A stretch of 36,873 nucleotides of DNA from Chitinophagaceae bacterium. Its GTDB lineage: Bacteria; Bacteroidota; Bacteroidia; Chitinophagales; Chitinophagaceae. A program made the translations under genes and the position numbers. Every line of letters begins with the position of its first letter. Position 1 is the stretch's first letter. The stretch is from positions 1 to 36,873 of the forward strand of contig JABFRU010000079.1 in the NCBI GenBank assembly GCA_013140985.1. Reading direction: 5' to 3'. Below the pieces are notes generated by a model, which searched no databases, was not told the origin of the DNA, and saw only the letters and a list, made by a program, of their open reading frames with translations. This document shows positions 324 through 31,134 of this stretch, piece by piece.

Positions 324-395
324 GGTCCCGTAGTTCAATGGATAGAATAGAAGTTTCCTAAACTTTTGATACAGGTTCGATTCCTGTCGGGACTA
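324..395 (+). tRNA. tRNA-Arg, anticodon CCU
   Basis: A complete cloverleaf can be drawn. The acceptor stem GGTCCCG pairs with CGGGACT, with one G-U at the end. The D arm is GTTC/GAAT. The anticodon stem GAAGT/ACTTT carries the loop TTCCTAA with CCT at 357-359. The T arm is ACAGG-TTCGATT-CCTGT. The discriminator base is A395 and CCA is not encoded. The anticodon CCU reads the arginine codon AGG. No second copy of its 3' end was seen in the window, so there is no sign of an integrated element here. Confidence 0.93.
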
Positions 396-21565: not shown

Positions 21566-21581
21566 TCACCCGGCGGGGTGA
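21566..21581. promoter_or_regulatory. Palindrome TCACCC-N4-GGGTGA, copy 1, upstream of the sensor kinase
   Basis: TCACCCGGCGGGGTGA has perfect 6-nt arms. It lies 57 nt before the kinase start and 21 nt before the -7 box TACATTTG at 21603-21610, the place of the -33 element or just upstream of it, where no TTTG is present. The position would suit an activator. It is the only copy with the N4 GGCG; copies 2 and 3 have AACC. Confidence 0.7.
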
Positions 21582-21602
21582 ACCCACAAATGCATTATAG
21601 AG

Positions 21603-21610
21603 TACATTTG
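21603..21610 (+). promoter_or_regulatory. -7 box (TACATTTG) of the sensor kinase operon
   Basis: TACATTTG matches TAnnTTTG and ends 28 nt before the ATG at 21639. No TTTG is seen at the -33 position, consistent with dependence on an activator. Confidence 0.55.
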
Positions 21611-21638
21611 TTTTAGTATCGAGGGTTAATCCTGATAA

Positions 21639-23747
21639 ATGAAACAACGGATATTCATATTGATTTTTATTATTCTGCAGGCCGCTTTTGTTGTAGCGCA
21701 AAATAATTCCTCCCAAACCCTTACTGTAAACAGGGAAGCCCTTTTGGCTGATTCTCTCGATTTAACAGCAAGGCAACTAATGTTTAAATTAAAATACGAC
21801 AGTGCAAAACATTTTCTTGACAAAGCCCTGGGTCTTGCCCTCCAAAGCGGCAGCGACAACATTATTGCCCGGTGCTATGTGGATTATGCAAATCTATATA
21901 ACGTACAGGGGAAATATAAAACTGCAACAGAGTATATACAAGCTGCAGCCCCTTATCTTGAAAAAGCTGATAACTATGAAGTAAAAATTAATGGCATCCT
22001 GTTACAGGCTTCCCTTCACATGCTGTCTGGAAAAAAAGACTCTGCTGTTTATTATTACCGGGCAGCGGAAAAATATAATGCTGAAAAAAATCCATACAGG
22101 AACTACCTGGTTTATATGTCACTGGGCGAATTGTATAACCAGATGGATGATAATGCTGAAGCGGAAAAGTATTACGGGCAATCTTATAAGCTCACCGCAA
22201 ATAAAGAAGGCAAGCCTGACCACATATACCTGCTTACTGTTTATTTAAATTTTTATCTCGCCAAAAATAAACCCGAAAAAGCCGGGCCGCTGATTGAAGA
22301 ATACAATGCATTGGTGGAGGAGCGCAGGAAAAAGAATATTAAGGACCCGCTGCGGGATATCCTAATGGGGATCACTGATAGTAAGCTGACAACAAATACG
22401 GAGTTTATGAAATCAGTAAAAGAAAAAAGTATGGAGGCGGGAATGCCGAACCAGGCATTAATGGCCAACCACTACCTGATAAAAAATTCAGAGAAGAAAA
22501 AAAAATACGAAGAAGCCCTGAAACTTGCTGACGAAAGCGAAGGCCTGGCTGAAAAAACCGGCAACATCCATTCCATATATGAAATAAAGAAAATAAAATT
22601 CGGGTTATTGGAGAAAGCGGGAAAACACCCCGAGGCAAATGCGATGGCAGATGTTTTGTTTATTTTAAAAGACAGTATGCTGGCATTGCAAAAAAGGGAG
22701 CAACTCTACGAACTGGAAACAAGATTTGAAACAGAAAAGAAAGAAAAAGAAATAGCGTTGCTTTCTTCCAACAATATGCTTAAGGAAAAAGAGATTGCCC
22801 TTTTACTGGCGGATAAAAAAATGGGGGCCTTGCTTTTGCGGCAGCAAATAATGCAGCGAACTGCATTGGGAAGAGAAAACCAGCTGATGGATTCCATCGT
22901 AAAAAGCGAACAAGCTTACAGCTTGTCTGTAAATAAAGAAAAAGAAAAACAAACAGCGTTGAATGCTGCATTGGACAGGGAGAATGATTTAAAAGCAATA
23001 CAGCTTATTAAAGAAAAAAGAACAAAGTGGATGCTGGCAGGCGGCGCTGCATTACTGTTGCTGTCGGGTATTTCCATCCTCGTATTGTACAGGAAACAAA
23101 AAAAGAAAAATAGAATCATCCAAAAGCAGGCTACCGACCTGGAAGTGCTGATGAAAGAAATACACCACCGGGTAAAAAATAACTTACAAGTAGTAAGCAG
23201 CCTGTTGGATTTGCAAAGCCACAGCATAAGCGATGCACAGGCACATGAAGCAGTGAAGGAGGGGAAGAACCGGGTGCAAAGCATGGCGCTCATTCACCAA
23301 AATTTATACAGCGAAGGAAATATAAAAGGCATTAAACTAAAAGAGTATGTGGGTAACCTTTTGCAAACACTTTGTGATTCGTATAATATAACAAACGATA
23401 AAGTAAAAATTAATGTTGCAATAGATGAGTTGAACTTAGATGTGGATACCATGATACCACTTGGACTAGTGTTAAACGAATTGGTGAGCAATTCTTTCAA
23501 GTATGCGTTCAAGGAAAAACAAAATGGTGAACTGAATATTATGCTGGAAGAACAGGCCGGGCAACTGCACCTGATGGTAAGTGATAATGGCAATGGTTTT
23601 CCGGCAGGGCTGGATATAAAAACGGGGAAATCATTTGGCATGAAGATGATAAGGGCATTTGCCCAAAAACTCAAAGCGAAGTTGGACGTTTATAATAATA
23701 ATGGCGCCGTAGTAGAAATGCATATTTCAAAATATAAAACAGCATGA
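21639..23747 (+). CDS. TPR-containing sensor histidine kinase (HisKA_2 type)
   Basis: The protein has 702 residues. It has a signal peptide (MKQRIFILIFIILQAAFVVAQ), a periplasmic region of TPR-like helical pairs (about 45-340), a long coiled coil (about 345-460), one membrane helix (about 463-485, WMLAGGAALLLLSGISILVLY) and a cytoplasmic kinase. The phosphoacceptor motif is EIHHRVKNNLQVVSSLLDLQ (His510, the residue before Arg, is the usual site). The ATPase has NELVSNSFKYAF, DNGNGFPAG and GKSFGMKMI. This is the HisKA_2/HATPase arrangement common in Bacteroidota TPR kinases. The stop overlaps the response regulator start by 4 nt (ATGA), so the two form a two-component pair. The signal sensed is unknown; a TPR sensor suggests a protein or peptide ligand. 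Confidence 0.93.
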   Translation: MKQRIFILIFIILQAAFVVAQNNSSQTLTVNREALLADSLDLTARQLMFKLKYDSAKHFLDKALGLALQSGSDNIIARCYVDYANLYNVQGKYKTATEYIQAAAPYLEKADNYEVKINGILLQASLHMLSGKKDSAVYYYRAAEKYNAEKNPYRNYLVYMSLGELYNQMDDNAEAEKYYGQSYKLTANKEGKPDHIYLLTVYLNFYLAKNKPEKAGPLIEEYNALVEERRKKNIKDPLRDILMGITDSKLTTNTEFMKSVKEKSMEAGMPNQALMANHYLIKNSEKKKKYEEALKLADESEGLAEKTGNIHSIYEIKKIKFGLLEKAGKHPEANAMADVLFILKDSMLALQKREQLYELETRFETEKKEKEIALLSSNNMLKEKEIALLLADKKMGALLLRQQIMQRTALGRENQLMDSIVKSEQAYSLSVNKEKEKQTALNAALDRENDLKAIQLIKEKRTKWMLAGGAALLLLSGISILVLYRKQKKKNRIIQKQATDLEVLMKEIHHRVKNNLQVVSSLLDLQSHSISDAQAHEAVKEGKNRVQSMALIHQNLYSEGNIKGIKLKEYVGNLLQTLCDSYNITNDKVKINVAIDELNLDVDTMIPLGLVLNELVSNSFKYAFKEKQNGELNIMLEEQAGQLHLMVSDNGNGFPAGLDIKTGKSFGMKMIRAFAQKLKAKLDVYNNNGAVVEMHISKYKTA

Positions 23748-24367
23748 GCAAACTAAAAGTACTGATAGTGGAAGATGAGCCGGTAATAGCCGAAAATGTA
23801 TCGCTGTACCTGGATAACCATGACTTTGAAGTAAGTGCCATTGCATACGACAGTGATGAAGCATTTGAACAATTAAAAACAAACACACCCGATGCAGTGA
23901 TATTAGACATTAATTTAGAAAGCGAGAAAGACGGCATTGACATAGCGCAGCACATTAACCAGCAATACCAGCTTCCTTTTTTATTTCTTACTTCCTACTC
24001 TGATAAAAATACATTGGACAGAGCCAAGAATGTTAAGCCAAGCGGCTACATCGTAAAGCCCTTTAATGAACGCACCTTGCTTGCATCTTTGGAAATCGCT
24101 ATCAGTAATCATGCCACCGAAAAAAATCACGACCTGCCAAAGCTTAGTATAGAAAAAATGAACAGGCATTTACTCTCACCATTATCTGACCGGGAGTTTG
24201 AAATAGTGCAATTAGTATATGATGGCATGAGGAATACCCAGATTGCTGAAAAAATTTTTGTGACAGTAAATACAGTAAAAACACATCTGAAAAATATTTA
24301 TCTGAAATTAGATGCTAATACCCGCCTCCAGGTTATTCAAAAACTCAGGGAACTGATGATGAAATAA
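23744..24367 (+). CDS. LuxR/NarL-family response regulator
   Basis: The protein has 207 residues. The receiver domain (1-120) shows Glu10/Asp11, the phosphorylation site Asp55 in VILDINLE, Thr83 in FLTSYSD and Lys105 in YIVKPF. A linker is followed by a C-terminal LuxR-type helix-turn-helix (about 145-205): LSDREFEIVQLVYDGMRNTQIAEKIFVTVNTVKTHLKNIYLKL. The gene overlaps the kinase by 4 nt, so it is its partner. It should bind a palindromic site as a dimer; the TCACCC-N4-GGGTGA palindromes beside the kinase and both beta-roll genes are the obvious candidates. One of them starts at the base right after this gene's stop codon. Confidence 0.95.
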   Translation: MSKLKVLIVEDEPVIAENVSLYLDNHDFEVSAIAYDSDEAFEQLKTNTPDAVILDINLESEKDGIDIAQHINQQYQLPFLFLTSYSDKNTLDRAKNVKPSGYIVKPFNERTLLASLEIAISNHATEKNHDLPKLSIEKMNRHLLSPLSDREFEIVQLVYDGMRNTQIAEKIFVTVNTVKTHLKNIYLKLDANTRLQVIQKLRELMMK

Positions 24368-24383
24368 TCACCCAACCGGGTGA
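24368..24383. promoter_or_regulatory. Palindrome TCACCC-AACC-GGGTGA, copy 2, upstream of beta-roll protein 1
   Basis: It has perfect 6-nt arms and starts at the base after the response regulator stop. Exactly 50 nt separate it from the ATG at 24434. A -7-like TATCTCG starts 29 nt after its end (24412-24418). Confidence 0.75.
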
Positions 24384-24433
24384 ACAACCAAACAGTTTTT
24401 AGTTGAATTTTTATCTCGTTAAAATTAAATGAG

Positions 24434-27085
24434 ATGAAAAAACTGCTTCCACTTTTTGCAATACTGTTTTCTTTTTACCATATCAATGCACAGAATGTGG
24501 GTATTGGTACAGTTTTTCCTAATGCCAGTGCACAATTAGATATTACCAGTACTTCAAAGGGGTTGCTGATTCCAAGATTGACATCCTCTCAGCGCACAGC
24601 CATAGCTTCACCAGCTACTGGGTTACTTGTGTATGAAACCACTTCAAGTAGTTTTTGGTATTACAATGGCTCTGCCTGGAATCAATTAGTTTCAGTAGCC
24701 ACATCTCCCTGGACAGTAAGTGGGAATAATATATATAACAGCAACAGCGGCTATGTGGGCATTGGCATTGCAACACCGGCGGCAAAACTGCATGTGGCGG
24801 ACAGCAGTGTAGTTTTTTCAGCAACTGGTACTGTGCTTGCTGTTCCCGGCACCACTCCTGTAATCGGTGCCGGAAGAAGAATGATGTGGTATGCAGATAA
24901 AGCAGCTTTCAGGGCAGGCTATGTATCAGATGATAACTGGGACAAGGACAGTATTGGAATCTATTCTGTGGCAACAGGGCATAATACAATAGCGTTAGGC
25001 GATTATTCATTTACTGCAAATGCCAGTAACAGGGCATTAAAGCCCGGTTCCTCCGCAATGGGTATTAATAATATTGCTGATGCGTATAACAGCATGGTAC
25101 TTGGCTCAAATAATATTGCTCATACACCGGCAGGGTTCGTGATTGGAAGATTTAATGATACAGTGATAACTGAAAATAACCTGACTGCACCAGCTCCCGA
25201 ACATCCGCTTTTCATAATTGGAAATGGAATTAGTGTCGGTACCCGGCGCAATGCTTTGGTAGTAAACCAAAATGGAAGAATGGGCATTGGCACCAACTAT
25301 CCGGCCGCAACGCTGCATGTGGCAGACAGCAATGTAGTGTTTTCAGCAGCAGGTGGTATTGGTGCTACTTCACCTGATACTGTGCCAATAAGCGGAATGG
25401 GGAGAAGGATGATGTGGTATCCAAGAAGTGCAGCTTTCAGGGTGGGCTATGTAGATGGTACCAACTGGGACAAAGATAGCATAGGCAGTTACTCATTTGC
25501 AGTTGGAAATAATACAAAGGCCATTGGTAGTTCTTCAACAGCAATGGGATTTAGCACAGATGCAAGGGGATTTTTTTCAACAGCAACCGGAAGTAGCACA
25601 ACCGCATCCGGCTATGCTTCAACTGCAATGGGGTTTAGCACAGACGCAGTTGGCCGTTCTTCAACTGCAATGGGAGAATACTCAAAAGCATCCGGCTATG
25701 CTTCAACTGCAATGGGGTCTGGTCCAATTGCAAGGGGCGAATATTCGACTGCAATAGGATATTCGCCAGATGCAATTGGCAACTTTTCTACTGCTATTGG
25801 GAATTCCGCAGTTGCAACTGGCGAAAATTCTACTGCGATAGGCTTTGGTGTTTGGACAAGGTCTTATGCTTCATTATCAATTGGCCGTTTAAATGATTCA
25901 ATTATCACCAGTTCGCCAACAAGCTGGGTAGCTACGGATCCTCTTTTTATTATTGGCAATGGCACTTCCAGTACCCGCAGCAATGCAATTACGGTTTTAA
26001 AAAATGCAAAAACAGGTATCAATACATCTTCACCGCTTGCCATGCTGCATGTGGCAGACAGCAGTACTGTATTTACCGCAACAGGAGTAGCAAACCCAAC
26101 ACCGGGCAATCCACCGGTAAGCGGGGCGGGCCGCCGTAATATGTGGTATGCAGATAAAGCCGCTTTCAGAGTTGGATATGTAAGCGGCACTAACTGGGAT
26201 AAAGATAATATCGGCAACTACTCCTTTGCCGCAGGTAACGATGTGTTGGCTAGTGGCCAGCAATCTGTAGCATTTGGCTCCTCTTCACAGGCGTTAACAG
26301 CAGAAAGTTTTGCAATAGGTAATAATGCAATTGCTTCAGGTCTTGGAGCAAGGGCAATGGGATTGAATGTAACAGCAAGTGGGGACCAGTCAACCGCAAT
26401 TGGCTATAATCATACGGCTTCCGGAGGTTATGCAGTGGCGTTGGGCTCTGTCAATACAGCATCAGGGTTTGCCTCAACCGCAACCGGAAGTTTCACTATT
26501 GCCTCCGGCGATTATTCGTCTGCCAACGGTCGGTTTACCAAATCAAAATCATTTGCAGGAACCGTAGTGGGTATTTATAATGATTCCACGAACGCAGCAA
26601 GCGGTACTGCAATCAACCAAAGCAATCGTCTCTTTCAAATTGGAAATGGCACAGCAGATAATGCAAGAAGCAATGCAATGACTGTACTTCAAGACGGCAG
26701 CACGGGGATAAATACATCACTACCGGAAACGAATATGGATGTAAACGGCGATTTAGCTCTCCGGCAAAATGTAATAACACTGGCTGGAGGATTAAACTCA
26801 AATATCAATGTAGGTAAATACAGTTTTGTAAAAATTACCGGCCCTGCTATTAATTTTTCTATTGATGGCATACAGGGCGGGGTGGATGGAAAAATACTGA
26901 CACTGTATAACCTTACCGGCACCAATATGACGATTGTGGACCAGACAGGAAGTGCCTCCAACCTTATTAACCGTATTAATACATTAGAAGGCGGAGTGGC
27001 TATCAGTACCATAGCCAATGGCTCGGTTACCCTTCAATACAGTGCAGCCGATAACCGTTGGATGGTGATAGCGATGAAGGAGTAA
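24434..27085 (+). CDS. Large secreted beta-roll protein with YadA-head-type repeats (protein 1)
   Basis: The protein has 883 residues with a signal peptide [20 protein letters not shown]. The N-terminal cap (21-85) has [20 protein letters not shown] and LIPRL, followed by a [11 protein letters not shown] segment, a motif common in Bacteroidota surface proteins. Three copies of a module starting LHVADSS begin near residues 118, 293 and 536. Between and after them are 14-residue repeats ([14 protein letters not shown] type, about 367-480, and about 620-700), which build the left-handed beta-roll of YadA and Hep/Hag heads. The C-terminal cap (about 755-883) ends [17 protein letters not shown]. 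No YadA membrane anchor is present and no clear type IX sorting domain was recognised, so its attachment is unknown. An adhesin or surface fibre is likely; trimerisation is inferred from the YadA repeats. Confidence 0.82.
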
Positions 27086-27087
27086 AA

Positions 27088-27103
27088 CCACCCAACCGGG
27101 TGA
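27088..27103. promoter_or_regulatory. Palindrome CCACCC-AACC-GGGTGA, copy 3, upstream of beta-roll protein 2
   Basis: It is identical to copy 2 except for the first base, leaving 5-nt perfect arms. Exactly 50 nt separate it from the ATG at 27154, and a -7-like TATATTG starts 29 nt after its end (27132-27138), the same offset as at copy 2. Confidence 0.75.
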
Positions 27104-27153
27104 GTGATGAACCAATGGTATAAAGCATTTTTATATTGCTAAATCAAAGCAAT

Positions 27154-29853
27154 ATGACAAAGCTATTTCTTTTTGCAGCCATGTTTTTCTTTGTAATAAG
27201 CTGCGGGGCGCAGAGTGTGGGCATCGGTACCACCACACCATCGGCCAGTGCTCAATTAGATATCACCAGCACAAGCAAAGGATTGCTCATTCCCAGAATG
27301 ACAAAAGCTCAAAAGAATGCCATTGTATCACCCGCAACCGGGCTATTAATTTATCAAAGCGGGCCAGACAGTATTGGCTTCCAGTATTACACCGGCAGCA
27401 GTTGGTTTTGGCTGGAGCCGTTAAACACCAGTGCATGGAAAACAACAGGCAATGCAGGAACAGATACCGCAGTAAATTTTATCGGAACAACGGATAATAT
27501 ACCACTGGCCTTTCGTGTAAATAACGAAAACAGCGGCAGGATTGAAAGTAATATTGCTTCCGCCAATTCGTATCTGGGATTCCGCAGCGGAAGATTTACC
27601 ACCGGTAATTTCAATACCGCATTTGGAAACCGGGCCATGTCGTTAAATACGACCGGTAACTCAAATGTAGCTGTCGGTGCTTTTTCATTGGCAGGCAATG
27701 TTAACGGAAGCGATAATATCGCCATTGGCAACAGCGCCTTGTTATCACAGTCTGGTTCTCCTGCCAATATTGCTATTGGCACCAATGCATTGCGCAACAA
27801 TCTAACAGGCCCCGGCCAGGTCGCAATAGGTCATGAAGCCCTTGCCGCCAATACCTCGGGATTTTTCAATATGGCAATGGGTTATGAAGGCCTTACTTCC
27901 AATACCACCGGTTCCAATAATATTGCGTTTGGGTTTCAGTCACTGCGTTCAAACACCACCGGCATTCTTAATTATGGCATAGGATACCAGTCATTATTTT
28001 CCAATACTGTGGGCGGGTATAACCTTGCTATCGGCATGGAGGCATTAAAGGCTAACACAAGTGGAACTTTTAATATCGCTATTGGCGGCTGGCAGAATAT
28101 GTACAATAATACTACAGGTGGCGCTAATATTTCAATTGGTGCAGAGTGGCCCAATAGCAGTTTATATAATAATACCACCGGCTCAAGAAACATAAGCATT
28201 GGAAGTAACATGTTTAACAATACCACCGGTACAAATAATATTGCTTTGGGCTACCTGGCGTTGAATAATTCCCAAACTAAAAGCGACAACATAGCAATAG
28301 GCACTGCTGCATTATTGAGTAATGGAATCAATGCACCATTGGCAATACAGGCTGTCGGCAATACGGGTATCGGATCTGGTGCATTAAACGGCAATTCCAG
28401 GGGAAGCTATAACACTGCCATCGGATATTCCACAGCCACACTTGATACAGCGCAAAGTTTTAATACCGCAATCGGAGCCCTTACATTGAATGCAGCCAAA
28501 GGCAACAGGAATACTGCGGTTGGATATTCAGCTTTATTAAACAGCCAGGGCAGTTCCAATGTTGCAGTTGGTGAACAGGCATTGATGGATAGCACCGGGA
28601 ATTATAATGTAGCCGTGGGCGCCGAAGTGCTGAAGAACAACCAAGGCAGTAATAATGTGGCAATGGGATACAAGAGTTTGCTGAACAACAGAACAGGAAA
28701 TAGTAATATAGCCATCGGCGACAGTGCCGCTTATACCAGCGCCGGCGTTTCAGAAATAGTAGCCATTGGAAGTAAGGCCCTGCTCCAAAATGTATCGGGG
28801 GTGGATAATACTGCAATTGGCAGCCATGCATTACAGTTAAATACAAATGGCCATTTTAATACTGGGGTTGGGAGTTATGCTTTACAGCGAAATACCAGCG
28901 GCCTCCGCAACACGGCTTTGGGGAGTTTCGCTATGTTTGATAATATGGGTAATGAAAATGTTGCGGTAGGTGCCGGTGCGCTGGGTCTATTCACCAGCGG
29001 GTCCAATAATGTTGCCATTGGTGCTTACGCAGGTTATGGCGCTTCAGGGTCAGGAAACATTTTTATAGGCTCAAAAACCGGAGAGGGGGCAAATAGCTTT
29101 TCTGATAAACTTATCATTGACAATTTTGATAACCCTAATCCATTAATATGGGGCGATTTCTTTTTCAACAGGCTGCGTATTAATGGTGTATTGGATATTA
29201 ATAACGCCTACGTATTTCCTGCGGCAGACGGAGCTGCAAACCAGGTAATGCGTACTGATGGCGCCGGTGCAGTAAGCTGGTCTAATGCAATCGTATCCGC
29301 CAATAATGGACTAACCCTTACCGGCAGCAATGTAGTATTGGGTGGCACATTAATTAACAATACTACCATTATCCATGAGGCGCAGAATTTTACACACAAC
29401 CTGGGAGGTACCGGTGATTTTATTATTACCACTCCTTCTTCCACTGCATTTACTGTTTTGCAAAATGGCGTCACCGGTTTTAATACAGCCTCACCAGCAG
29501 CAGTAATAGATGCCAATGGCGATTTAGCAATCCGGCAAAATGAAATAACTGTCAGCAATGGCGTAAATAACGATGTGAGCACCGGTCCATTCAGTTTCAT
29601 AAAAGTAACCGGGCCTGCAGCGGCATTTTCATTAAGCGGTTTTACCGGCGGGGTGGATGGCAAAGTACTAACTGTATTGAATCTTACCGGACAGAATATG
29701 ACTATTGTAAACCAGGGCGGAAGTGCATCAGCAACTGTAAACCGCATCAACACTCTCAGCGGGGCAGATATTGTTACCACAGGCAATGGTTCGGTAACCA
29801 TGCAGTACAGTGCTGCTGACAGCCGTTGGATGGTAATTGCGGTAAGAGATTAG
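27154..29853 (+). CDS. Large secreted beta-roll protein with about 17-residue repeats (protein 2)
   Basis: From the ATG at 27154 the protein has 899 residues; an in-frame ATG six codons upstream is not preferred because the 50-nt operator spacing matches protein 1 at 27154. The signal region MTKLFLFAAMFFFVISCGAQ could be cut after AQ or lipidated at the Cys. The N-terminal cap ([20 protein letters not shown]) matches protein 1. The core (about 150-640) consists of degenerate repeats of about 17 residues, such as NTTGSNNIAFGFQSLRS, forming a beta-roll or beta-helix like those of phage fibres. The C-terminal cap (about 770-899), including NGDLAIRQNEIT and LQ-like YSAADSRWMVIAVRD, matches protein 1. 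No anchor domain was recognised. It is probably a surface fibre or adhesin. Confidence 0.82.
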   Translation: MTKLFLFAAMFFFVISCGAQSVGIGTTTPSASAQLDITSTSKGLLIPRMTKAQKNAIVSPATGLLIYQSGPDSIGFQYYTGSSWFWLEPLNTSAWKTTGNAGTDTAVNFIGTTDNIPLAFRVNNENSGRIESNIASANSYLGFRSGRFTTGNFNTAFGNRAMSLNTTGNSNVAVGAFSLAGNVNGSDNIAIGNSALLSQSGSPANIAIGTNALRNNLTGPGQVAIGHEALAANTSGFFNMAMGYEGLTSNTTGSNNIAFGFQSLRSNTTGILNYGIGYQSLFSNTVGGYNLAIGMEALKANTSGTFNIAIGGWQNMYNNTTGGANISIGAEWPNSSLYNNTTGSRNISIGSNMFNNTTGTNNIALGYLALNNSQTKSDNIAIGTAALLSNGINAPLAIQAVGNTGIGSGALNGNSRGSYNTAIGYSTATLDTAQSFNTAIGALTLNAAKGNRNTAVGYSALLNSQGSSNVAVGEQALMDSTGNYNVAVGAEVLKNNQGSNNVAMGYKSLLNNRTGNSNIAIGDSAAYTSAGVSEIVAIGSKALLQNVSGVDNTAIGSHALQLNTNGHFNTGVGSYALQRNTSGLRNTALGSFAMFDNMGNENVAVGAGALGLFTSGSNNVAIGAYAGYGASGSGNIFIGSKTGEGANSFSDKLIIDNFDNPNPLIWGDFFFNRLRINGVLDINNAYVFPAADGAANQVMRTDGAGAVSWSNAIVSANNGLTLTGSNVVLGGTLINNTTIIHEAQNFTHNLGGTGDFIITTPSSTAFTVLQNGVTGFNTASPAAVIDANGDLAIRQNEITVSNGVNNDVSTGPFSFIKVTGPAAAFSLSGFTGGVDGKVLTVLNLTGQNMTIVNQGGSASATVNRINTLSGADIVTTGNGSVTMQYSAADSRWMVIAVRD

Positions 29854-29910
29854 AAAATCCTCAGCTCTTGTAATAAAAAGAAAAGATTAACTTTAAATAA
29901 ACCACCAGTT

Positions 29911-31134
29911 ATGAAGTCTTTTCTATTTGTTTTACTCATTTCTCTTTTTTACAGTCTGGCACAAGCTCAACCATCTGATGCCACCATAAAAAAAGATGCA
30001 ATCGGAAATGAGAGCGGAGTGCTGAGTTTTAAATTTACAAAAAGCACCGGTACCCGCCAATGGAACAGGAGCACCGGCAATTGGGAATACGTAAGAGGGG
30101 TGGCGGTGAAACGTAAAAGTGAGTATCCCGGTATTAACCTGGTGGTGTATGAAGATGTGGTGTACCAGTACACTGGTGGTGGCGGATACAGTTTCTGGAA
30201 GGTACGGGTGGTGAGTAATGAATATGAAGGTCTCCCTAATCCTACACTGTCGGACATTACCGGTTTGATAAACAAGGATCCGGAAAAATTTTATGGCTAT
30301 TATTATTCGCTGATCACAAAACTCTGGCATCAACCACAGCTGGCAGACACACCCGGGTTTATATGGTCCAGCCCAAAAGCGGTTGAGTTCAGGATGAAAA
30401 TGAAGTTTGACTACATTGTTCGTTCAAAAGGTATTGAAACGCTGGAAAGTATCTGGAATGTCCATCTGTACCGCGACGAACCAAAAGGCCCCTGGAAAAG
30501 TATGTTTGCTACCCGCAGCGAAGATGGCACTGAAAACCAGGTGCTGGATTTTAAAGCATACACGCCTCAGCAGTTAGCCGATTTTGAAAAGCAGACGTTG
30601 CAGTTTACCATAGCTGAGCAAAAGGGCAAACAACAAGCTGCCGACCTTGCAAAAACAATCACAGTACCTGAATTCAATAATGCAGACGAAATGCTTCGCT
30701 TCCTGCATGATGTATTGAGAAATGGTAATCCTGATAAACTGAGAGCTGTGATGCTGCAGGTACTGGCCCCGGGCTTTTTTGTGGAAGGCAGCAAAGTTCA
30801 GCTCATGCCAACAGAAGAAAGAAATCTTGCTGATGTAATAACGGCTGTGTACAACAATAAAGTGAAATATAAAGATCTCTATTGCGCCGTACCTACCTAT
30901 AAGGTAGAAAGATGGGGCAATAGTGATACAAGAAAGGACATTACTATCAGAAGCGTAGTGGACAACTGCAATACATTATTTACTGTTGACAGGGTAAATA
31001 TTGGTTACGTAGAAGGCGTTCCGGTAACAAGGTTAGTTATTCTTTCCTATGGCATATATGTGCGACAGGACCAGGATGCCATTAACTATATTAACTCATT
31101 CAGCGACAGGAGTAAAATATGCCCGAATGACTGA
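29911..31134 (+). CDS. Secreted protein of unknown function, last gene of the surface block
   Basis: The protein has 407 residues with a signal peptide MKSFLFVLLISLFYSLAQAQ. No domain is recognised. Visible features are an Arg/Trp-rich N-terminal part (TRQWNRSTGNWEYVRGVAVK), a Tyr/Gly-rich YQYTGGGGYSFWKVRVV, a central helical stretch (about 225-255) and a C-terminal mixed alpha/beta region ending CPND. It is transcribed in the same direction as the two beta-roll genes, 57 nt after the second. A weak TTG-N17-TAACTTTA pair (29868-29895) could be its own promoter, and no TCACCC palindrome is present. A strong terminator follows. A role with the beta-roll proteins is only inferred from position. 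Confidence 0.7.
   Translation: MKSFLFVLLISLFYSLAQAQPSDATIKKDAIGNESGVLSFKFTKSTGTRQWNRSTGNWEYVRGVAVKRKSEYPGINLVVYEDVVYQYTGGGGYSFWKVRVVSNEYEGLPNPTLSDITGLINKDPEKFYGYYYSLITKLWHQPQLADTPGFIWSSPKAVEFRMKMKFDYIVRSKGIETLESIWNVHLYRDEPKGPWKSMFATRSEDGTENQVLDFKAYTPQQLADFEKQTLQFTIAEQKGKQQAADLAKTITVPEFNNADEMLRFLHDVLRNGNPDKLRAVMLQVLAPGFFVEGSKVQLMPTEERNLADVITAVYNNKVKYKDLYCAVPTYKVERWGNSDTRKDITIRSVVDNCNTLFTVDRVNIGYVEGVPVTRLVILSYGIYVRQDQDAINYINSFSDRSKICPND

What the first reader, a model, noticed from the sequence alone, without database searches (positions are those of the whole stretch)
21566..31134. Candidate self-contained regulon: TPR two-component pair, repeated palindrome and two giant beta-roll surface proteins
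A TPR histidine kinase and its LuxR-type regulator (overlap ATGA) are followed on the same strand by two secreted beta-roll proteins of about 890 residues and a third secreted protein. The palindrome TCACCC-N4-GGGTGA sits upstream of the kinase operon and both beta-roll genes and was not seen elsewhere in the window. The simplest reading is that the regulator controls its own operon and the surface fibres. I know of no described system with this layout, but I cannot search.
Basis: partly seen in the sequence, partly recalled or inferred. Interest (0 to 1): 0.75.

Follow-up and report, generated by a model that had tools for sequence, protein, structure and literature searches.

The report
Two-component switch for surface-fibre genes
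A bacterial sensor-regulator pair sits beside genes for large secreted surface proteins, and a DNA palindrome in front of them, kept at a fixed distance from the promoter in many related species, is very probably the switch by which the regulator turns on itself and those proteins.

Summary
TCACCC-N4-GGGTGA occurs exactly twice in the 3.86 Mb genome, before the kinase operon (21566) and the first beta-roll gene (24368); a one-mismatch copy precedes the second (27088). Around 60 homologous regulators (window included) collected by protein similarity, a palindrome with at least 10 of 12 matches lies just after the regulator gene in 26 of 59 (0.4 expected) and upstream of the kinase in 18 of 46 (0.2 expected). 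In 48 sites a Bacteroidota -7 box (TAnnTTTG-like) sits about 38 bp from the palindrome start (TTT at offset 42 in 30 of 48; mean 3.3 elsewhere), the geometry of an activator beside polymerase. Genes behind such sites are mostly signal-peptide-like (33 of 41, against 226 of 588 others). The same genome holds a second TPR-kinase/LuxR/surface-protein cassette with its own operator (TCACCC-N4-TCGCTA, four copies, box at +39). Binding and activation are untested, and the palindrome also occurs in genomes without a close regulator. The closest known system is FimS/FimR of Porphyromonas. It is a new regulon of a known kind; I found no description in the held papers.

The parts
21566..21581 (+). operator 1, TCACCCGGCGGGGTGA, upstream of the kinase-regulator operon
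   Evidence: homologous sites upstream of kinases in 18 of 46 regions, window included
21603..21610 (+). predicted -7 box TACATTTG, 37 bp from the start of operator 1
21639..23747 (+). TPR sensor histidine kinase: hydrophobic N-terminus, TPR region, one TM-like stretch near 463-485, HisKA_2 and HATPase_c
23744..24367 (+). LuxR/NarL-type response regulator (REC + GerE), overlaps the kinase stop by ATGA
24368..24383 (+). operator 2, TCACCCAACCGGGTGA, directly after the regulator stop, 50 bp before the first beta-roll gene
24406..24413 (+). predicted -7 box AATTTTTA at +38 from the start of operator 2 (imperfect)
24434..27085 (+). secreted beta-roll surface protein, 883 aa, YadA_head repeats
26702..27082 (+). 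C-terminal cap; in a search of the own genome with the second protein only this gene matched that part
27088..27103 (+). operator 3, CCACCCAACCGGGTGA, one mismatch
27126..27133 (+). predicted -7 box CATTTTTA at +38 from the start of operator 3 (imperfect)
27154..29853 (+). second secreted repeat protein, 899 aa, same C-terminal cap; body resembles phage tail-spike/virion repeat families
29911..31134 (+). secreted protein of unknown family, 407 aa, no operator of its own; close homologs beside the same pair in L213 and L082, a remote one in L228

Best explanation
The locus is a self-contained two-component regulon. The TPR kinase, anchored in the inner membrane with its TPR part in the periplasm, senses an unknown signal and phosphorylates the LuxR-type regulator. 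The regulator dimer binds TCACCC-N4-GGGTGA, centred about 44 bp upstream of the expected start of transcription, and helps RNA polymerase use a promoter that has a Bacteroidota -7 box but no conserved -33 box. It thereby raises its own operon and the two adjacent beta-roll surface proteins, the second probably together with the 407-aa protein. Shown by computation: the sites, their rarity in the genome, their conservation beside this regulator across families, their register with the -7 box, and the signal-peptide-like nature of most genes behind them. Inferred: that this regulator is the binder, that it activates, the phosphotransfer, where the proteins sit and what is sensed.
For: Exact sites: 2 of 2 at the locus in the own genome. 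Regulators found by protein similarity (L067 was first fetched because it carried a palindrome but is also one search match): site with 10 or more of 12 matches within 330 bp after the regulator in 26 of 59 (shuffles 0.41) and upstream of the kinase in 18 of 46 (shuffles 0.18), window counted once in each. 37 of 60 regulators have at least one such site; in the window's own clade (support 93/84) 9 of 10, the tenth with a degenerate copy. In 48 sites (44 of score 10 or more, three weaker ones of L070 and L072 added by hand, and window site 3) TTT falls at offset 42 in 30 and at 41 in 22 (the counts overlap); other offsets average 3.3, maximum 9; an A..TTT box at 37-39 in 34 of 48; strict TAnnTTTG 7 times at 37-39 and 3 times at 90 other offsets together. 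Distinct genes behind sites in register: 33 of 41 signal-peptide-like against 226 of 588 others, p 1.3e-7. L213, another genus, keeps kinase, regulator, capped beta-roll and 407-aa homolog, with a one-mismatch site before the kinase and before the beta-roll. In L217 a gene with a diverged cap lies on the opposite strand and still has an exact site with TAATTTTG at +38. 17 N-terminal matches of the same surface-protein family elsewhere in the own genome have no site better than 8 of 12 upstream. A second cassette of the own genome and a sister regulator clade show other second half-sites in the same register.
Against: No binding, expression or start-site data. 23 of 60 regulators have no site of 10 or more matches nearby; for some the flank was not held, others carry variants. 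Exact palindromes also occur away from the regulator (11 of 25 in regulator-bearing genomes) and in genomes without a close regulator (G125 has 7), partly as hairpins or coding sequence. The half-site TCACCC is shared with other LuxR-type cassettes, so cross-binding is possible. Two of the window's three -7 boxes are imperfect. The 407-aa gene has no site.
Confidence: 0.85

Rival explanations
1. The palindrome is an RNA hairpin: an intrinsic terminator after the regulator and beta-roll genes, or a leader structure, not a protein-binding site.
For: Sites 2 and 3 directly follow stop codons. In other family genomes the same word does sit in terminator-like hairpins, for example in L028.
Against: Site 1 follows no + strand gene (its upstream neighbour is on -). 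No T-run follows the stems in the window. The word keeps its distance to a -7 box in most of 48 sites, so it lies upstream of the transcript start. It is found upstream of kinases and of an inverted target.
Confidence: 0.04
2. The site is bound by a different regulator, and these two-component genes are merely among its targets.
For: Exact palindromes exist in genomes without a close homolog of this regulator, and other LuxR-type cassettes share the TCACCC half-site.
Against: In the own genome the near-perfect noncoding sites are at this locus, plus one before another TPR kinase. 14 of 25 exact copies cluster at the regulator over 24 genomes. The other cassettes carry their own second half-sites, GGTTCTA or TCGCTA, in the same register, as expected if each regulator has its own operator.
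Confidence: 0.07
3. The regulator binds the site but represses these promoters.
For: The palindrome overlaps the place of the -33 element, where a bound protein could block polymerase.
Against: No TTTG-like -33 element is conserved between palindrome and -7 box in the 48 sites, so the promoters look weak without help. The spacing mostly varies by 1 bp, as for a protein touching polymerase. FimR, the nearest described analogue, activates (PMC1974823, passages).
Confidence: 0.1
4. Shared ancestry alone: sites 2 and 3 are copies made when the beta-roll gene duplicated and have no function.
For: Sites 2 and 3 share 15 of 16 bases.
Against: The word is conserved with changing spacers across several family labels of the order while the downstream genes differ.
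Confidence: 0.02

Closest known systems
FimS/FimR two-component system of Porphyromonas gingivalis (fimA and mfa1 fimbriae)
   Same: Bacteroidota; inner-membrane kinase with a periplasmic TPR sensor region between two TM segments; the regulator raises surface-fibre genes and binds the mfa1 promoter (PMC11053733 and PMC1974823, passages including parts of the abstracts). The window kinase's TPR part matches the NCBIfam FimS model weakly (E 9.1e-08). That FimR is LuxR-type is recalled.
   Different: The kinase scores 30.8 against the FimS cut-off of 600; its core is HisKA_2; no fimbrillin model is hit; the word palindrom does not occur in the main text of PMC1974823.
NarL/FixJ (LuxR/GerE) response regulators such as VraR
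   Same: REC plus GerE domain; VraR is the best PDB match of the regulator (E 3.2e-20); an inverted-repeat site fits a dimer (general knowledge).
   Different: The operator and its geometry on Bacteroidota promoters were derived here; no held paper has both half-sites together with 'response regulator'.
Trimeric autotransporter heads (YadA, BpaC, Ata)
   Same: P0003 has YadA_head repeats (E 7.9e-33) and matches the BpaC structure 7o23 (E 6.4e-24).
   Different: No YadA anchor model is hit; the cap has no PDB relative below E 0.18; P0004 resembles phage tail-spike/virion repeat families instead.

Membership tests
FimS/FimR system | sensor kinase with a TPR region between a hydrophobic N-terminus and a TM segment | tested here: met
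   TPR_12 hit at 159-204; hydrophobic stretches at 1-24 and 463-485
FimS/FimR system | kinase passes the NCBIfam FimS cut-off | tested here: not met
   30.8 bits against 600
FimS/FimR system | targets are fimbrillin genes | tested here: not met
   no fimbrillin model hit in P0003-P0005 in Pfam or NCBIfam at E 0.001
FimS/FimR system | regulator binds target promoters and activates | not testable with these tools
   needs EMSA and expression data
NarL/FixJ response regulators | receiver domain plus GerE helix-turn-helix | tested here: met
   Response_reg 2.6e-23, GerE 1.7e-15
NarL/FixJ response regulators | phospho-acceptor aspartate and conserved lysine of the receiver present | tested here: met
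   D55 and K105 invariant in the 15 rows of A1; their roles are recalled family knowledge
Trimeric autotransporter adhesin | YadA-type head repeats | tested here: met
   P0003 only; P0004 has no Pfam hit
Trimeric autotransporter adhesin | C-terminal YadA membrane anchor | tested here: not met
   no anchor model among the Pfam hits; no strongly hydrophobic segment beyond the N-terminus

The most novel reading that the evidence does not exclude
These bacteria carry a family of sensor-to-surface cassettes built on one plan: a TPR kinase, a LuxR-type regulator, and a private operator that keeps one half-site (TCACCC) and changes the other (GGGTGA, GGTTCTA, TCGCTA), always placed so that a -7 box follows about 38 bp from its start. 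What stands behind the operator is exchangeable: capped beta-roll fibres, other secreted proteins, and in one clade a small noncoding RNA of a multi-copy family. Lineages would thus duplicate and rewire envelope sensors to choose what they display, with the half-site keeping parallel cassettes apart.
Probability: 0.65. Interest if true: 0.66.

Novelty: new member of a known kind. Interest (0 to 1): 0.56.

Why it matters
As far as I know few operators of Bacteroidota two-component regulators are defined. Here site, promoter geometry and targets can be read from sequence and followed across an order, which gives testable targets for a large group of uncharacterised TPR sensor kinases. Two parallel cassettes in one genome, with different second half-sites, offer a natural test of how related regulators keep apart while each governs its own surface proteins.

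Tried and rejected
Considered and rejected: terminator or RNA hairpin (see rivals). Exact palindromes in the 195-genome sample as such were a poor test because many are hairpins or coding, so I changed to regulators chosen by protein similarity. Of the 80 loci of the named-genome scan only L082-L084 were used in the counts; L083 is the same locus as L233, and L233 was dropped. The weaker matches (below roughly 222 bits) were not fetched. In L226 no regulator ORF was recovered, so it is not among the 60; its sites are in the gene lists. Some rows are near copies (for example L080 and L218) and were kept.

The first check of surface-protein relatives in the own genome caught one wrong gene and missed others; one search replaces it. 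The intergenic one-mismatch site, first passed over, turned out to stand before a second cassette; for that reason I raised the odds of the novel case from 0.60 to 0.65 and the interest from 0.52 to 0.56.

The structure model of the cap was poor (mean pLDDT 45.5); no fold search was made with it and nothing rests on it. The cap profile found no PDB relative below E 0.18. Alignment had wrong coordinates for two rows, and one search had a faulty pattern that kept one sequence; both were replaced. The idea that the small RNA pairs with start codons of secreted genes was tested by searching its complement: of 29 loci looked at, 21 hold the exact 13-base word; 19 of these are copies of the RNA and 2 open only 10-codon frames, so the idea is not supported. 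Paper searches for the layout, the surface proteins, TAnnTTTG with a response regulator, and the operator words gave listings in which I saw nothing that names this system; no paper of those listings was opened.
Full report
What is there. On the + strand lie a TPR sensor kinase (21639-23747), a LuxR-type response regulator that overlaps its stop by ATGA (23744-24367), two secreted repeat proteins (24434-27085, 883 aa; 27154-29853, 899 aa) and a secreted 407-aa protein (29911-31134). The kinase has TPR_12, HisKA_2 and HATPase_c, with hydrophobic stretches at residues 1-24 and 463-485, so the TPR part should be periplasmic (inference). The regulator has Response_reg and GerE. The first repeat protein has YadA_head repeats and matches the BpaC head structure; the second has no Pfam hit but resembles phage tail-spike and virion repeat families. 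Both end in the same cap of about 127 residues. In a search of the own genome with the second protein, that part matched only the first protein, although the repeat body and N-terminus have many relatives.

The palindrome. TCACCC-N4-GGGTGA occurs exactly at 21566 and 24368, and with one mismatch at 27088. The genome of 3,858,101 bases has 2 exact copies, both here, and 0 of the reversed control. Of the 8 one-mismatch places one is 27088; of the other 7, 6 lie inside ORFs and 1 is intergenic, discussed below. With 2 mismatches the genome count (91) is less than twice the control (49), so weaker sites cannot be told from chance.

A test not based on the palindrome. I gathered homologs of the regulator by protein similarity: 15 full-length matches, own included, in 195 family genomes, 28 matches in 24 of 394 family genomes, and matches in 55 of 396 order genomes. 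I fetched the surroundings of the best-scoring ones and added three named-genome loci. With one duplicate dropped, 60 regulators remained, the window's included. The best 12-base match was 10 or more after the regulator gene in 26 of 59 (shuffled expectation 0.41) and upstream of the kinase in 18 of 46 (expectation 0.18). 37 of 60 have at least one such site. In the tree 9 of 10 regulators in the window's own clade (support 93/84) have it; the tenth has CTACCC-N4-GGGTAA. Sites occur beside regulators of four family labels (f1, f3, f18, f19); f18 should be Saprospiraceae, because its L233 equals the named locus L083.

Geometry. In 48 sites aligned on the palindrome (44 of score 10 or more, three weaker ones of L070 and L072 added by hand, and window site 3) the conserved feature downstream is a Bacteroidota-type -7 box about 38 bp from the palindrome start. 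TTT lies at offset 42 in 30 of 48 and at 41 in 22 (overlapping counts); other offsets average 3.3 with a maximum of 9. An A..TTT box starting at 37-39 is present in 34 of 48, so 14 lack it. Strict TAnnTTTG falls 7 times at offsets 37-39 and 3 times in the 90 other offsets together. In the window the boxes are TACATTTG, AATTTTTA and CATTTTTA. No -33 TTTG element is conserved in between. The box consensus is recalled from the Bacteroidota literature; papers carrying it appear in the listing. With the start of transcription expected a few bases after the box, the palindrome would be centred near -44, the place of an activator that touches polymerase.

Targets. Distinct genes behind sites in register, other than kinase and regulator, are signal-peptide-like by a crude rule in 33 of 41 cases, against 226 of 588 other genes of the same loci (p 1.3e-7). 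L213, another genus of the same family, keeps the whole layout: site, kinase, regulator, site, a capped 1053-aa beta-roll protein, then the homolog of the 407-aa protein; both sites have one mismatch. L214 has an exact site before each of two such surface proteins. L211, same genus, has sites before the kinase, before a pair of small secreted proteins and before a protein with the same N-terminal motif. In L217 a gene with a diverged cap lies on the opposite strand and still has an exact site with TAATTTTG at +38. L082, the best named-genome match (regulator 80% identical), has the 407-aa homolog right after the regulator and no beta-roll gene there, so the fibres look replaceable. In one clade (six loci) the site stands before a small RNA-like element instead.

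A second cassette in the same genome. The one intergenic one-mismatch site (G000:C2:39283) lies 96 bp before the TTG start of another TPR kinase, of HisKA_3 type, followed by another LuxR-type regulator (24% identical to the window's) and at least three surface proteins with the same N-terminal motif. That first site has no clear -7 box and also looks like a hairpin after the preceding gene, so it is uncertain. But TCACCC-N4-TCGCTA occurs exactly 5 times in the genome: 4 times within 3.6 kb of this cassette, before the regulator and before each of three surface genes, and once inside another gene. All four have a box (CATTTTTG, CAACTTTG, CACCTTTG, CAACTTTG) at +39. The reversed control at the one-mismatch level was similar in number to the scattered one-mismatch hits. 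A sister clade of the window's regulator (L071, L082, L210, L211) likewise has TCACCC-N4-GGTTCTA with a box at +38, in three of the four loci in tandem with the window-type pair. So one half-site is shared and the other differs between cassettes, in the same promoter register. Of 17 N-terminal matches of the surface-protein family elsewhere in the genome (one probably internal to another), none has a GGGTGA-type site better than 8 of 12 upstream.

Results against. The palindrome is not exclusive: 38 of 195 family genomes have an exact copy (5 of 195 for the control), some as hairpins after genes, including a tRNA, or inside genes, and G125 has 7 copies without a regulator match at E 1e-30. Over the 24 regulator-bearing family genomes 14 of 25 exact copies are within about 10 kb of a regulator, 11 are not, and 11 genomes have none; the control has 4. 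23 of 60 regulators lack a good site nearby. Nothing here shows binding or expression.

Closest known. FimS/FimR of Porphyromonas has a periplasmic TPR sensor kinase whose regulator raises fimbrial genes and binds the mfa1 promoter (PMC11053733 and PMC1974823, passages). It works alike, but the kinase fails the FimS cut-off by far (30.8 against 600) and no fimbrillin model is hit. I therefore file this as a new member of the known kind 'local two-component regulon for surface structures', not as a FimS/FimR system. The paper searches showed no description of this operator or layout; only openly licensed papers are held.

Verdict. It gains from order-wide conservation, promoter geometry and a second cassette in the same genome. 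It is limited by the lack of any experiment and by its being a known kind of regulatory logic.

Noticed in passing
G000:C2:39283-46500 (L315, L275, L316-L319): Second TPR-kinase (HisKA_3)/LuxR/surface-protein cassette of the same genome, with its own operator TCACCC-N4-TCGCTA before the regulator and three surface genes and a -7 box at +39.
   Followed up: partly
L067, L073, L075-L078 downstream of the regulator; own genome L291 (G000:C25:22850) and L301 (G000:C45:17585): A short noncoding RNA-like element, GGTTTTTCATAGGATATTGGAT followed by a GC hairpin with compensatory changes and usually a T-run; 19 sequences aligned, one of them only a lookalike. In six loci of one clade a copy lies behind the palindrome and -7 box. 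No Rfam match at gathering score in the six loci; at the two own-genome loci only hits far below gathering scores.
   Followed up: partly
L071, L082:3045-3668, L210:5415-6089, L211:14145-14768: Sister kinase-regulator pair with a variant operator TCACCC-N4-GGTTCTA and a -7 box at +38, in three of the four loci in tandem with the window-type pair.
   Followed up: partly
own genome contigs C4, C46, C67, C21, C2, C18, C70, C63, C12, C13 (L270-L282): Many further secreted proteins share the N-terminal motif or repeat body of the window's beta-roll proteins but did not match its cap; 17 N-terminal matches have no window-type operator upstream.
   Followed up: partly
G125 (seven exact palindromes; L023): A family member with seven exact palindromes but no regulator match at E 1e-30; whether another regulator or terminators explain them was not examined.
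   Followed up: no
window 324-395: A tRNA gene, the only Rfam match at gathering score in the window.
   Followed up: no
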